A stretch of 64,000 bases of DNA from Methylobacterium sp. CB376 (GTDB lineage: Bacteria > Pseudomonadota > Alphaproteobacteria > Rhizobiales > Beijerinckiaceae): NCBI RefSeq assembly GCF_029714205.1, contig NZ_CP121648.1:3428001-3492000 (forward strand), written 5' to 3'. The position numbers and the translations under genes were made by a program. Of the stretch, positions 8,061-60,801 are shown in pieces. Numbering within the stretch: the first letter of the stretch is position 1; each line of letters begins with the position of its first letter. The notes under the pieces are model-generated. The model was given only the letters and a program-made list of their open reading frames with translations, made no database searches and was not told the DNA's origin.

Positions 8061-8146
8061 GGGCCGGATCCTCCAGGCCCGTCCTCGCGCCGAGAGATCG
8101 AACGCCTCCCGATGTCCGGCCCTCACACGCGCGCGATGACGCGATG

Positions 8147-8180
8147 ATCCGGGATCCGCTTGATCAAGCGGATCCCGGAT
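8147..8180. repeat. 34-bp perfect palindrome (interspersed repeat, hairpin type Q)
   Basis: ATCCGGGATCCGCTTGA is followed at once by its exact reverse complement, giving 34 bases of uninterrupted symmetry between convergent glgA and the Fe-S gene. With one mismatch it extends to 42 bases. The same GATCCGGGATCCGCT arm recurs at 50065 and, diverged, at 60706. It can act as a bidirectional terminator. Confidence 0.85.
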
Positions 8181-8199
8181 TATCCTCCGCCTCCGGGCC

Positions 8200-39511: not shown

Positions 39512-39566
39512 GGAGCGGGACGGGGCGCCCTCGCGGCGCCCCTCCGGCCACCCACCCGCGGGTCAT

Positions 39567-39735
39567 CCGACATCCGGCTGATTGCTCCGCCATGCGGATG
39601 TCGGCGTCGCTCAGGCGCCGCGCGGGCTTGGCATACCCAATCCGCTCGATCCCTTCGGGATGGCGGATTGGGGCTTCGCTCAGGCGCCGCGCGGGCTTGT
39701 TACCCGCTCTCCGGACGTGATCGTCCGGACAGCGG
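39567..39735. repeat. composite interspersed repeat (three hairpins, two linkers)
   Basis: The element sits between convergent genes. Hairpin P is CCGACATCCG/CGGATGTCGG (39567-39604). A linker GCTCAGGCGCCGCGCGGGCT follows. Hairpin R is CCAATCCGC...GCGGATTGG with inner ATCCC/GGGAT (39637-39671). The same linker repeats at about 39678-39697. Hairpin S is CCGCT-C-TCCGGACG/CGTCCGGA-C-AGCGG (39704-39735). P and the linker recur at 50.1 and 60.65 kb. Confidence 0.85.
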
Positions 39736-39736
39736 A

Positions 39737-40993
39737 TCAGTCCACCCACTCGCCCCGGCGCATCACCGGCTCGGCGCCGCCCTCGGCGGTGAGGCCGTCG
39801 ACGTCGACCGCGGCCGAACCGATCATCCAGTCGATGTGGATCAGGCTGCGGTTGGCGCCGCGGGCCGCGAGATCCTCCTCGGACAGGCCCTGGCCGCCCT
39901 CGCGGAAACACTTGCTGTAGGCTTGGCCGAGCGCGATGTGGCTCGCCGCGTTCTCGTCGTAGAGGGTGTTGAAGAACAGCAGCCCCGAGGCCGAGATCGG
40001 CGAGGAGGCCGGCACCAGGGCGACCTCGCCCAGCCGGCGGGCGCCCTCGTCGGTGTCGAGCACGCGGGCGAGCACGTCGGCGCCGCTGCGCGCCGTCGCC
40101 TCGACGATCCGCCCGTCCGCGAAGCGCACCGCGATGTCCTCGATCAGGGTACCCTGGTAGGAGAGCGGCTTCGTCGCCGCCACCCGCCCCTCGACCCGCA
40201 GCCGGTGGGGGGTGGTGAAGACCTCCTCGGTCGGGATGTTGGCGTTGCAGATGATGCCGCTGCGCGAGGCCGAGGCGCCGCCGCACCATTCGTGGTCGTC
40301 GGCGAGCCCGACCGTCAGGTCGGTGCCCGGACCCTGGAAGCGCAGGGCCGCGTAGCGCCGCCCGTTGAGCCGGTCGGTCCGGCGGCGCAGGGCGGCGTTG
40401 TGCGCCGCCCAGGCCGCGACCGGATCCTCGCCGTCGACCCGCGAGGCGGCGAAGATCGCGTCCCACAGGCGCGCCACCGCCTCCTCCTCGGGCAGGCCCG
40501 GGAAGACGGCGCGGGCCCAGGCCGGCGTGGCCGCCGAGACGATGGTCCAGTTGGTCGCGAAGGTGGCGATCAGCTCCAGCGCCGGCTGGTAGGCCCGCGA
40601 GCGGGCGCGGTTGGCGCGCGCCACCTTGTCGGGATCCTGGCCGGACAGGAGCGAGGGATCGTCGCCCACGATGGCGAGCCGGGCGGCGCCGTTCCGGTAG
40701 GCGCTGGCCATGCCCTCGTAGAGCCAGCCCGCGGCGCGGTCGAAGGCGTCGTCGGGGGCGTGCGCGAAGCGGGCGAGCGTGGCCGCGTCGTCGCCGTAGA
40801 GCGTCGTCACCAGGGACGCGCCCGCCCGGTAGGCCTCGGCGGTGATGCGTCGGGCGAGGCCGAGGGCTTCGAGCGGCGCCGTCATCACCAGTTCCTGGCC
40901 GGGCCGCAGCCCGAGCCCGACCCGCACCGCGACCTCGGCGAGGCGGTCGAGGCGGGTTTCGTGCGCGCGGCTCATGGAAACGTGAACATTCAT
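39737..40993 (-). CDS. M29-family aminopeptidase
   Basis: This 418-residue protein belongs to the thermophilic aminopeptidase family M29 (AmpS/AmpT), cytoplasmic metal-dependent exopeptidases. Conserved features are RLDRLAEVAVRVGLGLRPGQELVMTAPLEAL at the N-terminus, DDHEWCGGASASRSGIICNANIPTEEVFTTP, and the Glu/His-rich C-terminal half (YDENAASHIALGQAYSKCF and HIDWMIGS). I chose ATG 40993, which has GAGGGA 6 bases upstream. A GTG at 41041 that overlaps the DUF2218 stop in GTGA is an alternative, adding 16 residues. It follows DUF2218 and a CoxL-like gene on the same strand. Confidence 0.88.
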   Translation of the reverse strand: MNVHVSMSRAHETRLDRLAEVAVRVGLGLRPGQELVMTAPLEALGLARRITAEAYRAGASLVTTLYGDDAATLARFAHAPDDAFDRAAGWLYEGMASAYRNGAARLAIVGDDPSLLSGQDPDKVARANRARSRAYQPALELIATFATNWTIVSAATPAWARAVFPGLPEEEAVARLWDAIFAASRVDGEDPVAAWAAHNAALRRRTDRLNGRRYAALRFQGPGTDLTVGLADDHEWCGGASASRSGIICNANIPTEEVFTTPHRLRVEGRVAATKPLSYQGTLIEDIAVRFADGRIVEATARSGADVLARVLDTDEGARRLGEVALVPASSPISASGLLFFNTLYDENAASHIALGQAYSKCFREGGQGLSEEDLAARGANRSLIHIDWMIGSAAVDVDGLTAEGGAEPVMRRGEWVD

Positions 40994-41037
40994 CGGCATT
41001 CCCTCGTGAAACGACCCTGTCGCGGTCAGCCTATCCG

Positions 41038-41349
41038 TCACGCGAGCCGCGTCCAGGCGATCCCGCCGAGATCCTCCCGGAACGCGAAGCGGGCGAGGTG
41101 CTCGGCCACCACGGCCTCCAGCCGCGCCAGGGCCTCGGCGTCGGGAGCCCTCACCCGCAGGGTCAGGCCCTCGGAATCGGCCTCGAACACGGCCTCGCGC
41201 CCCTCTCCGAAGGGGACGACGCCCCGCTCCGGGGAGAACGCCGTCTCGGGGAAGCGGTGGCTCCAGTGCTTGCAGAGCTGGGTCAGGTAACGGCTGCCCT
41301 GGGTCGTGTCGACCCGGGCCTGCGCGGTCAGCAACGACGCCCCGCTCAT
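41038..41349 (-). CDS. DUF2218 protein
   Basis: This 103-residue protein starts at an ATG that overlaps the upstream stop by four bases (ATGA). The sequence LTAQARVDTTQGSRYLTQLCKHWSHRFPETAF followed by an alternating beta pattern (AVFEADSEGLTLRVRAPDAEALARLEAVVAEHLARFAFRE) is characteristic of DUF2218, small alpha/beta proteins of unknown activity often near iron or molybdenum genes. The KHWSHRF motif holds one Cys and two His that could bind metal. Tight coupling to the CoxL-like gene suggests a linked role. Confidence 0.88.
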   Translation of the reverse strand: MSGASLLTAQARVDTTQGSRYLTQLCKHWSHRFPETAFSPERGVVPFGEGREAVFEADSEGLTLRVRAPDAEALARLEAVVAEHLARFAFREDLGGIAWTRLA

Positions 41350-48984: not shown

Positions 48985-49217
48985 TCCACCGCGACTCGGA
49001 AGGGATCGACCCCGGGCGGGCCGCGCTCCCGGGAACCTCGGCCCCGGTGGGCCGCGGCGGCCGGACTGGCCTGGACGAGGCCTTCGTCACACGGTGCTCC
49101 GGACCGCGGTCGCGGTTGCGCGCCTTCGGCGCTTCCGCGATCGCCCGCAACAGGCCATCTGTTCACCGCGCGAACGGCATCGTCTCCGCCGCAACAGACA
49201 TCCCGAGGACCGATCTC

Positions 49218-50066
49218 ATGAGATGCGACATCGTCGTCGTGCTGTACGAAGCAGAGCTCGCCCTGGCCCTCCTGCAGGCAGAATCGATCGCAAAATTCAT
49301 CGATCCGGCCTCGGTGGACAGGATCATATACTGCATCAACGACGAGGATCCGCGAACCACCAGCGATTTTATTTATAGCAAAATATATCCATTGCTCGAA
49401 AAGGTCGGGATACGGACTTGCATGCTTTTCAGAGAGCACTTTACACTTAAGACGGGCAATGGATATTGCCTGCAACAGATTCAGAAGCTTGAAACAGCGT
49501 TTAGAGTGCAGACTGATTTTTATGTGGCGATCGACACGAAAAACTTCCTTGTCAAAAATTTCAGCCTGTCGGATTTGTTCGTCGGCTCTTATCCGGCGAC
49601 ATTCCTCGAATCCTACGAGGAAAACGACTTCAGACGATACATGAAAAGCATGTACCTCGCCTACTGGTCTGTCCCGGATCCGCACACCGATATTCATCTG
49701 CCGGCCATGGCGACACCGTTCGTTTTCGAAGCGGACCTCGTGCGCGGCATGATCGCCGAGATCGAGAGGCGGGAGCGGACCTCCTTCGGACCGTTCTTTG
49801 AGAGGAATTTCGGCGCGAGCGGCGGCTACTCCGAATTTCTCTTGTACTCAGCCTACTTGTACAGCCAGCGGCAGCGCGCGGGCCGATCCCGGAGCTTCTC
49901 GCTCACGAGTTGGGGCGACACCCCCGTCGCTCCCGAAGAGATTCACGTCCTCGTCGACACGGCGAGGAACAATCCGGACTGGAAGATGTGCGGCATCCAC
50001 AAGGCCCGCCTCGGGCCGGATCCGCAGCGGACCCTGGATGAGATCCGAGCAGCGATCGGCCTCTGA
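49218..50066 (+). CDS. glycosyltransferase-like protein (DUF6492-like)
   Basis: This 282-residue protein starts at ATG 49218 with GAGGA upstream. The opening RCDIVVVLYEAELALALLQAESIAKFI is a Rossmann-like GT-A start. RIIYCINDEDP and DFYVAIDTKNFLVKN look like the nucleotide-sugar and D-x-D (here DTK) regions. The pattern PATFLESYEENDFRRYMKSMYLAYW, HLPAMATPFVF and GGYSEFLLYSAYLY resembles the DUF6492 group of predicted glycosyltransferases; that match is tentative. Bases 49350-49560 are strikingly A+T-rich (ATTTTATTTATAGCAAAATA), unlike the genome, which suggests horizontal acquisition. The stop codon TGA lies inside the stem of an interspersed repeat. Confidence 0.75.
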   Translation: MRCDIVVVLYEAELALALLQAESIAKFIDPASVDRIIYCINDEDPRTTSDFIYSKIYPLLEKVGIRTCMLFREHFTLKTGNGYCLQQIQKLETAFRVQTDFYVAIDTKNFLVKNFSLSDLFVGSYPATFLESYEENDFRRYMKSMYLAYWSVPDPHTDIHLPAMATPFVFEADLVRGMIAEIERRERTSFGPFFERNFGASGGYSEFLLYSAYLYSQRQRAGRSRSFSLTSWGDTPVAPEEIHVLVDTARNNPDWKMCGIHKARLGPDPQRTLDEIRAAIGL

Positions 50067-50195
50067 TCCGGGATCCGCTCGATCAAAGCGGATCCCGGAT
50101 CACAAGCCTGCGCGGCGCCTGAGCGCGGCGCCTGAGCGAAGCCGACATCCGCATGGCCGATATGGGAGATGGCGAAGCCATCAATCGGATGTCGG
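50064..50195. repeat. composite interspersed repeat, Q-linker-P order
   Basis: Hairpin Q (GATCCGGGATCCGCT/AGCGGATCCCGGATC, 50065-50101) is followed by the linker on the minus strand (two copies of GCGGCGCCTGAGC) and hairpin P (CCGACATCCG/CGGATGTCGG, 50142-50195). Read as reverse complement it aligns to 60612-60742 without gaps over 131 bases with about 11 mismatches. It supplies the stop codon of the preceding gene. Confidence 0.9.
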
Positions 50196-50279
50196 ATGTC
50201 GCGCTGCGCGTCGTGGGCAGGGCGGACGCGGTCGGCCCGCCCGCCGCGGCAGCGCGGCGCGGACGGCCGCAGGCCGGCA

Positions 50280-60265: not shown

Positions 60266-60611
60266 AGCCGCTCTCCCGAGGAGCTCTCAGCATTCATGAG
60301 AACTGCATTGCTGGAAGGCTAAGTTCACGTACAGTCTATTCTGACCCATGGGAACGTATCATGGGGTCGGTGCTAAATGCAGGCGCCGATGTGCCGTTCG
60401 CGCTAAACTCGGCTTCATACTGTGCGAGCGCATAGTTAATGGACGGTTAACGTCGGAAACTAACATGGTAGGCTTGCAGGCGTGACAGTAGAGTGCCGTC
60501 GAGCGGCCTACCGCAAACTTGGATGCAGATCGCCGAAGGGGCGCAGGGCAGCGGGAATTGCGGCCCGTCACGCGGCAGCGGAGCCGGTGAAGACCCGGGA
60601 ATACAGATCAT

Positions 60612-60742
60612 CCGACATCCGATCGATTGCTTCGCCATCTCCGATTTCGGCCATGCGGATGTCGGCTTCGCTCAGGCGCCGCGCTCAGGCGCCGCGCAGG
60701 CTCGCGATCCGGGACCGGCTTCGATCAGGCGGATCCCGGATC
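60612..60742. repeat. composite interspersed repeat, P-linker-Q order
   Basis: Hairpin P (CCGACATCCG 60612-60621, CGGATGTCGG 60656-60665) is followed by the doubled linker GCTCAGGCGCCGC and a diverged hairpin Q (GATCCGGGA 60706-60714, TCCCGGATC 60734-60742). It is the inverted counterpart of the 50064-50195 element: 131 bases, no gaps, about 11 mismatches by hand alignment. Confidence 0.9.
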
Positions 60743-60801
60743 AATCGCGGGCTGCTCCTGTGCCCGCCAGCCGGCTTGACGGGCCATCCCTGGTCAACTA
60801 C

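What the first reader, a model, noticed from the sequence alone, without database searches (positions are those of the whole stretch)
39567..39735. Modular intergenic palindromes built from interchangeable hairpins and one shared linker
Four places (8147, 39567, 50064, 60612) carry pieces of one system. Hairpin P (CCGACATCCG/CGGATGTCGG) occurs at 39.6, 50.1 and 60.65 kb; hairpin Q (GATCCGGGATCCGCT and its complement) at 8.15, 50.1 and, diverged, 60.65 kb; hairpins R and S only at 39.6 kb. A linker containing GCTCAGGCGCCGC joins them, once between modules at 39.6 kb and doubled internally at 50.1 and 60.65 kb. The 39.6-kb element is P-linker-R-linker-S; the others are P-linker-Q. This is the logic of E. 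coli BIMEs (REP units plus linkers), but the sequences are of a kind I have not seen described.
Basis: partly seen in the sequence, partly recalled or inferred. Interest (0 to 1): 0.75.

Follow-up and report, generated by a model that had tools for sequence, protein, structure and literature searches.

The report
Stop-codon-hugging modular mobile repeats in Methylobacterium
The window carries three full copies and one fragment of a small two-hairpin DNA repeat, about 110-170 bases long, that is scattered through Methylobacterium genomes and often sits exactly on a gene's stop codon, which reappears at the edge of the repeat so that the gene stays whole.

Summary
The sequences are real, at the stated places. 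They belong to a repeat family with hundreds of copies: 523 linker sites in this genome against 2 in the control, and a structure-model match in 78 of 110 Methylobacterium genomes. Linker counts are low, at most 12, in 388 other genomes of the order. It is not a BIME. Order is fixed: head hairpin (P or R), linker, optional extra units, tail hairpin (Q or S), in 47 of 48 complete copies; the exception is two copies in tandem. No Y1/RAYT transposase was found here. What varies is the choice of head and tail and the number of internal units; against a same-species strain 3 of 15 loci differ in unit number. Near-identical copies with different flanks define a 108-110 bp mobile unit. Its ends tend to carry the same triplet, TCA...TCA or TGA...TGA, as if a 3-base target were duplicated. 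In 22 of 48 complete copies that triplet is a called gene's stop codon; element-free orthologues of sodB and pntB stop at the same codon. Arms differ between lineages but stay complementary. Best reading: a BOX/MITE-like non-autonomous mobile element. Its enzyme is unidentified; no host function is shown.

The parts
39563..39739 (+). Complete element P-linker-R-linker-S; left triplet TCA 39563-39565, right triplet TCA 39737-39739
   Evidence: CM hit 39631-39739, 104.6 bits, for the R-linker-S part
39567..39604 (+). Head hairpin P, short form
   Evidence: arms CCGACATCCG/CGGATGTCGG
39609..39622 (+). Linker core, copy 1
   Evidence: C1:3467609-3467622
39636..39672 (+). Hairpin R with inner TTC-loop hairpin; R also serves as a head elsewhere in the genome
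39678..39691 (+). Linker core, copy 2
   Evidence: C1:3467678-3467691
39704..39739 (+). Tail hairpin S; its terminal TCA is the TGA stop codon of the called gene 39737-41041 on the minus strand
50064..50199 (-). Complete element P(long)-linker-linker-Q; the TGA at 50064-50066 is the stop codon of the called gene 49047-50066 (+)
   Evidence: (88.9 bits)
50064..50102 (-). Tail hairpin Q
60608..60743 (+). Complete element P(long)-linker-linker-Q with TCA at both ends (60608-60610, 60741-60743)
   Evidence: (72.6 bits)
60670..60696 (+). Linker core in two tandem copies, 13-base period
   Evidence: C1:3488670-3488683 and 3488683-3488696
8146..8182 (.). Solitary tail hairpin Q, no linker or head found beside it

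Best explanation
A genus-wide family of small non-autonomous mobile elements (MITE-like, with the composite grammar of BOX elements). Basic unit: left triplet T(C/G)A, head hairpin with a nested TTC-loop hairpin, conserved linker (about CTTCGCTCAGGCGCCGCGCGGGCT), tail hairpin, and the same triplet again, 108-110 bp in recent copies. Shown: discrete borders, dispersed near-identical copies, matching end triplets, coincidence with TGA stop codons, drifting but complementary arms, unit-number change between strains. Inferred: the element enters a T(C/G)A triplet and duplicates it. TGA is the commonest stop codon here (857 of 1023 called complete ends), and insertion into a stop codon rebuilds it on both sides, so such insertions are tolerated and accumulate. 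Composite forms (P-linker-R-linker-S, doubled linkers) then arise by tandem gain and loss of units, not by shuffling. The transposase acts in trans and is unidentified; no Y1/RAYT protein was found in this genome. Effects on transcription ends or mRNA decay are possible by-products, not shown.
For: Borders: 7 copies in genome G105 and 11 in G099 are nearly identical inside and look unrelated outside (read by eye), G105 from (TCA)TACG to CGTA(TCA), G099 from (TCA)TACC to CGTA or CGGA(TCA), one G099 copy with TGA and one G105 copy with TCG on the left. End triplets: of 80 model matches in 1.584 Mb, 42 have TCA or TGA at both ends: TCA/TCA 34, TGA/TGA 6, TGA/TCA 2, TCA/TGA 0, Fisher p 5e-6; the other 38 have another triplet or a gap on a side. 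Stop codons: the tail end is the TGA stop of a called neighbour in 18 of 48 complete copies, the head end in 4 more; all four head cases have left TGA, 14 of the 18 tail cases have left TCA. Element-free pntB: 30 loci read, 28 without the linker, 27 of these end at the same TGA, the other two residues later. Element-free sodB: 24 of 80 loci read, 22 end at the same codon position (17 with TGA), two one residue earlier. In convergent gaps 12 of 20 elements sit on a stop, while stops are 224 of 1015 TGA/TCA triplets there. Covariation: 91.2% of cells paired against 74.9% in shuffles, 143 cells changed on both sides against 44; arm-swap permutations 0 of 2000 for each of three stems on 33 loci chosen by linker. 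Unit gain/loss: 3 of 15 loci. An IS5-family transposase gene is interrupted by a copy.
Against: No insertion was caught in the act: 14 of 15 loci in 400 kb are shared in place with a same-species strain and the 15th is probably displaced by a nearby 1-kb difference. At the interrupted IS5 transposase, comparison with five uninterrupted homologues leaves one base unaccounted for under a clean 3-base duplication; insertion beside the triplet with no duplication also fits. The internal tail triplet is often complementary to the right one, so part of the end-triplet match could come from the tail stem; that link is weaker in the own sample (p 0.08). The model that aligned the ends was built with TCA as consensus. 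Two of 48 complete copies lie inside called genes. With a fixed register the head-stem signal was small (5.2 of 9 paired against 4.7 swapped), because R-type heads are a base longer; the clear result needed a floating register, applied to data and controls alike. No parent IS was found: three genomes, one IS5-type domain. Terminal arms drift between species. Gene calls are my own (72% coding).
Confidence: 0.7

Rival explanations
1. Single-strand, hairpin-guided mobile element (IS200/IS605- or REPIN-like in behaviour): the hairpins are recognised as folded ssDNA, insertion is next to a short T(C/G)A(T) target with no duplication, and the element's own TCA end rebuilds the stop codon.
For: Arms drift as long as they pair, as expected if shape is read; the internal tail triplet is often the complement of the right end; the IS5 site fits insertion without duplication; no longer duplication was seen by eye in the flanks of 20 copies.
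Against: No Y1_Tnp in own or G050; 15 of 111 in the genus, 2 of the 12 genomes with most linker sites. Left and right triplets switch together, TGA with TGA in 6 of 8, which a fixed right end does not predict.
Confidence: 0.2
2. BIME/REP mosaic maintained by a REP-associated tyrosine transposase.
For: High copy number, hairpin units plus linkers, mostly extragenic location at 3' ends.
Against: Fixed order in 47 of 48, the other a tandem; no Y1_Tnp in this genome; no GTAG or CGTC foot tag as a constant feature.
Confidence: 0.04
3. Host-serving 3'-end RNA element (bidirectional terminator or mRNA stabiliser) kept by selection on the transcript.
For: Strong stems directly after stop codons, enriched between convergent genes: 20 of 43 elements with two called neighbours (2 inside called genes and 3 without neighbour left out) against 132 of 740 gene gaps; paired changes across species.
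Against: No U-tract is part of the consensus. G.T against A.C mispairs show no consistent strand sign: 6/22 (p 0.004), 16/29 (p 0.07), 21/24 (p 0.77) in three alignments of related sequences. The nearest other species found, G010, has 9 linker sites against 2 for the control and 1 model hit, and has pntB ending at the same codon without the element. Near-identical copies lie at different sites within single genomes.
Confidence: 0.12

Closest known systems
BOX elements of Streptococcus pneumoniae and S. suis (boxA-boxB(n)-boxC; passages of PMC3049150 seen)
   Same: Composite element with fixed left and right end modules, variable number of internal units in tandem, alternative end modules in one family (S. 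suis boxE/boxF), over-represented between convergent genes, unit-number variation between strains.
   Different: No sequence comparison was run; host here is a GC-rich alphaproteobacterium; the conserved part is a linker and the hairpin arms drift; the end triplet coincides with TGA stops. BOX ends were likened to ISSpn2; no parent IS is known here.
Bacterial MITEs such as ERIC, Correia/NEMIS, RUP (passages of PMC2229807 and PMC3049150 seen)
   Same: About 100 bp, non-coding, terminal inverted repeats, foldable, likely moved in trans, one copy interrupts a transposase gene.
   Different: Most are described with TA ends and AT-rich bodies; here a T(C/G)A triplet and a GC-rich body; internal conserved linker; no matching IS found.
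REP/BIME and REPINs with RAYT; GTAG- and CGTC-tagged REPs (PMC3733652: passages and section 6; PMC2817692: passages)
   Same: High-copy palindromes, mostly downstream of genes; GTAG REPs are reported to supply a TAG stop codon to flanking ORFs.
   Different: No RAYT found here, no constant tag, stems of 9-14 bp with a nested hairpin in the head (CGTC REPs: 8-9 bp stems, 4-5 base loops), strict head-to-tail order.
RIME and AB/C palindromic elements of Rhizobium/Sinorhizobium (named in passages of PMC2573895 and PMC2873474; original 1995 paper not held)
   Same: Alphaproteobacterial intergenic mosaic elements with large palindromes (partly recalled).
   Different: Sequences could not be compared; the linker pattern gives at most 12 sites in each of 388 genomes of the order outside the genus.

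Membership tests
BIME / REP-RAYT | REP units in alternating orientation, order free | tested here: not met
   48 complete copies: head-linker-tail order throughout; one string is two elements in tandem
BIME / REP-RAYT | A Y1 (RAYT) transposase in the genome or linked | tested here: not met
   PF01797: 0 in own genome; 15 of 111 in the genus
REP superfamilies | GTAG or CGTC tag at the hairpin foot | tested here: not met
   alignment A1: position after the head stem is mostly CTTC, sometimes CGTC; not constant
MITE | Short non-coding unit with defined ends, dispersed as near-identical copies | tested here: met
   G105 (7 copies) and G099 (11 copies), nearly identical inside, different outside
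MITE | Terminal inverted repeats | tested here: met
   TACGannTCCG / CGGAnntCGTA at the outer ends, imperfect and lineage-specific
MITE | Target site duplication | tested here: inconclusive
   matching triplets at both ends, p 5e-6 on 42 of 80 matches; pntB and the L061:19640 site fit; the IS5 site is off by one base
MITE | Partner IS with the same ends | tested here: not met
   20 PF13340 loci in three genomes, no matching ends among the best candidates printed; other transposase families not tested
BOX-like composite repeat | Fixed end modules with a variable number of internal units | tested here: met
   architectures P>S 11, P>Q 11, P>>Q 8, R>Q 5, R>>Q 3 and ten singletons such as P>R>S, P>R>Q, R>R>Q; 3 of 15 loci change unit number between strains
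BOX | Sequence homology to boxA/boxC | not tested
   no comparison was run
RIME / AB-C | Sequence of the published elements | not testable with these tools
   original paper not held
Rfam families | Match to a covariance model | tested here: not met
   window: 0 at gathering; 16 loci with the element at E up to 1: two matches, neither at the element

The most novel reading that the evidence does not exclude
A mobile element whose recognition lies in hairpin shape plus an internal linker rather than in its terminal sequence, so that its ends can drift freely while staying complementary, and whose insertion is steered to translation stop codons by a triplet that its own end re-creates. The enzyme would be neither RAYT nor a known IS partner.
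Probability: 0.15. Interest if true: 0.8.

Novelty: new variant of a known kind. Interest (0 to 1): 0.52.

Why it matters
It adds a high-copy, genus-wide repeat family to a group of bacteria where the paper searches made here (listings, and passages of one genus paper) showed none like it. It suggests a simple way for a mobile element to live in a compact genome: enter a stop codon and give it back. It also gives an evolutionary test case, arms that change together across species while a central linker stays fixed, and possible strain-typing loci. Finding the enzyme would tell whether this is ordinary MITE traffic or a structure-guided system.

Tried and rejected
RAYT link: tested in own genome and genus, not supported. 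Rfam: no match at the element. RNA-level selection by wobble counts: A.C looked in excess over G.T in two of three alignments; without the three outer tail pairs the excess stays significant only in the smallest alignment, so no claim is made. Guide-triplet model: internal-to-right complementarity is common but weaker than the left-right match in the own sample; kept as a rival. Presence/absence in the same-species strain: no clean case in 400 kb. Parent IS: one Pfam family in three genomes, no matching ends. Plasmid collection: no hit for the 50-kb copy; four Methylobacterium plasmids for the G071 copy, of which three were opened; in the two with listed genes none was a transposase, and the third had no gene listed there. 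First gene caller was too strict and was replaced. First arm-scoring scripts had wrong offsets or a fixed register and were redone. For alignment A1, 25 of the 33 relative loci were used; L153, L157, L163, L167, L169, L178, L179 and L181 were left out as incomplete or unusual, and 9 own copies were added. CM scan of 80 sodB loci of mixed genera: one weak hit, in Methylobacterium trifolii.

Full report
What is there. At 39563-39739 the order is P-linker-R-linker-S; at 50064-50199, on the minus strand, and at 60608-60743 it is P-linker-linker-Q with a longer P; at 8146-8182 a Q stands alone. The linker core GCTCAGGCGCCGCG with up to one mismatch occurs 606 times in the 7.69-Mb genome against 63 for the pattern read backwards. 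The 18-base form with up to two mismatches occurs 523 times against 2.

Grammar. I took eighty 20-kb stretches of the genome. In the 1.584 Mb used for gene context (76 of them plus the window), 95 clusters of modules were found, 48 of them with head, linker and tail. The order is head (P or R), linker, optional further units, tail (Q or S). The single string in another order is two elements in tandem. P goes with S and with Q, R nearly always with Q. The other 47 clusters are parts, lone hairpins or lone linkers, some of them chance. The composite forms are therefore a choice of ends plus a variable number of internal units, not a free mosaic. A covariance model built from 34 sequences finds 80 matches at E 1e-7 or better in the same 1.584 Mb, some of them neighbouring units of one element.

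Distribution. The model matches in 78 of 110 Methylobacterium genomes, at most about 35 candidates being scored per genome. By linker count the own species leads (523 and 506), followed by genomes with 178, 91, 91, 89, 88 and 85. Of 397 genomes of the order, 388 lie outside the genus; none of these has more than 12 linker sites, controls being 0 to 5. The genus name rests on named relatives of the neighbouring sodB gene, 98% Methylobacterium tarhaniae at best, records of the own genome possibly being left out by the tool.

Structure. In other species the linker is kept but the hairpin arms are different, and in most loci each arm still pairs with its partner. On 33 relative loci chosen by the linker, pairing within an element beats all 2000 permutations of arms between elements for the head stem, the inner head hairpin and the tail stem, with a register that may float by a few bases in data and controls alike; with a fixed register the head-stem difference was small, since R-type heads are a base longer. 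On alignment A1 (25 of these loci plus 9 own copies) the drawn structure has 91.2% paired cells, against 74.9% in shuffles and 43.1% or less when slid, and 143 cells changed on both sides against 44. A1 was picked for complete elements, so its percentages lean high. Wobble counts give no consistent sign of selection on a transcript.

Mobile unit. In genome G105 seven copies, and in G099 eleven, are almost identical inside and look unrelated outside. The shared part runs from TCA-TACG (G105) or TCA-TACC (G099) to CGTA-TCA or CGGA-TCA; one G105 copy has TCG and one G099 copy TGA on the left. No long duplication is seen in the flanks by eye. The first and last triplets tend to agree: in the own sample 34 TCA/TCA, 6 TGA/TGA, 2 TGA/TCA, 0 TCA/TGA among the 42 matches of 80 where both are TCA or TGA (p 5e-6); the other 38 have another triplet or a gap. 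In 91 matches from loci mostly of other genomes, near-identical copies included, the counts are 66, 1, 1 and 0.

Stop codons. In 18 of 48 complete own copies the tail's last triplet is the TGA stop codon of a called neighbouring gene, and in 4 more the head's first triplet is. The head cases have TGA on the left, with TGA on the right in three and TAG in one; of the 18 tail cases 14 have TCA on the left. Element-free orthologues show that the stop was there before. Of 30 pntB loci fetched, 28 lack the linker, and 27 of these end at the same TGA, the other two residues later. For sodB, 24 of 80 loci were read; 22 end at the same codon position, 17 of them with TGA, and two end one residue earlier. 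The head-side case at L061:19640 has the same TGA in G010. In convergent gaps 12 of 20 elements sit on a stop, although stops are 224 of 1015 TGA/TCA triplets there. Two of the 48 lie inside called genes and three lack a called neighbour. Gene calls come from my own script, with coding density 72%, so some genes are missed.

Dynamics. Against a same-species strain, aligned blocks over 400 kb are 96-99.9% identical, mostly above 99%. Of 15 loci 14 are shared in place and the fifteenth is probably displaced by a 1-kb difference; three loci differ in the number of units: a 13-base linker six times against twice, a 68-base R-linker unit, and a 35-base unit. Recent change is thus by tandem gain and loss. 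The nearest other species found, G010 (84-86% DNA identity in the two longest matches), has 9 linker sites and one model hit, so most own-species copies arose later or were lost there.

An interrupted gene. An IS5-family transposase gene near C1:3183790 is interrupted by the best-scoring copy among those scored in the genome. Five uninterrupted homologues on plasmids, of 15 listed, were read, and all five have a TGA triplet at the site. The fit to a clean three-base duplication is off by one base; insertion without duplication also fits. This is the main result against the duplication model.

Mechanism. The best-supported picture is a MITE-like element, moved in trans, with a T(C/G)A target, for which a TGA stop codon is a safe place because the stop reappears at the element's edge. 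Internal units then multiply by slippage or unequal exchange. The enzyme is not known. No Y1_Tnp is found here; 15 of 111 genus genomes have one, among them 2 of the 12 with most linker sites. Twenty IS5-type loci in three genomes showed no matching ends.

Known relatives. The grammar matches BOX elements (passages of PMC3049150). Supplying a stop codon is reported for GTAG REPs (passages of PMC3733652). Membership in BIME/REP fails on order and transposase. A genome paper on the genus, seen in passages, describes IS elements and a few MITEs but nothing like this (PMC2680597). The absence of a description is limited to the searches listed and to open-licence papers.

Noticed in passing
L062:13336-13439 (own genome) and more than 30 places in G010, e.g. 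L366-L368, L370-L373: A second interspersed repeat of about 105 bases, CTAGAGCATTTTCCGGCGAAGTGG...GCTGCTCTAG, also two-part and palindromic; at G010 C223:5881 its TAG follows the aligned gene's end, where the own genome carries the family described here.
   Followed up: partly
L394 (G000:C1:4633342, IS5-type locus): Inverted repeats of 16 identical bases beginning CTAGAGCG flank this IS5-type gene; they resemble the end of the second repeat family and may point to its parent.
   Followed up: no
window 21322-21442: Tandem array of a 22-23 base GC-rich palindromic unit (GGGGGACCCCACACGCGGGTGCG).
   Followed up: no
G000:C1:3183790-3184542 (L393, L182): IS5-family transposase gene interrupted by the element; the same insertion is present in strain G050 (L183).
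   Followed up: partly
L153:1963-2105 (-): Sub-threshold Rfam match to Brucella sRNA CI27 (35.2 bits, gathering 59.8) near an element in G012.
   Followed up: no
L249, L341: Sequence resembling the second repeat family also appears right downstream of sodB (L249) and pntB (L341) in other species.
   Followed up: no
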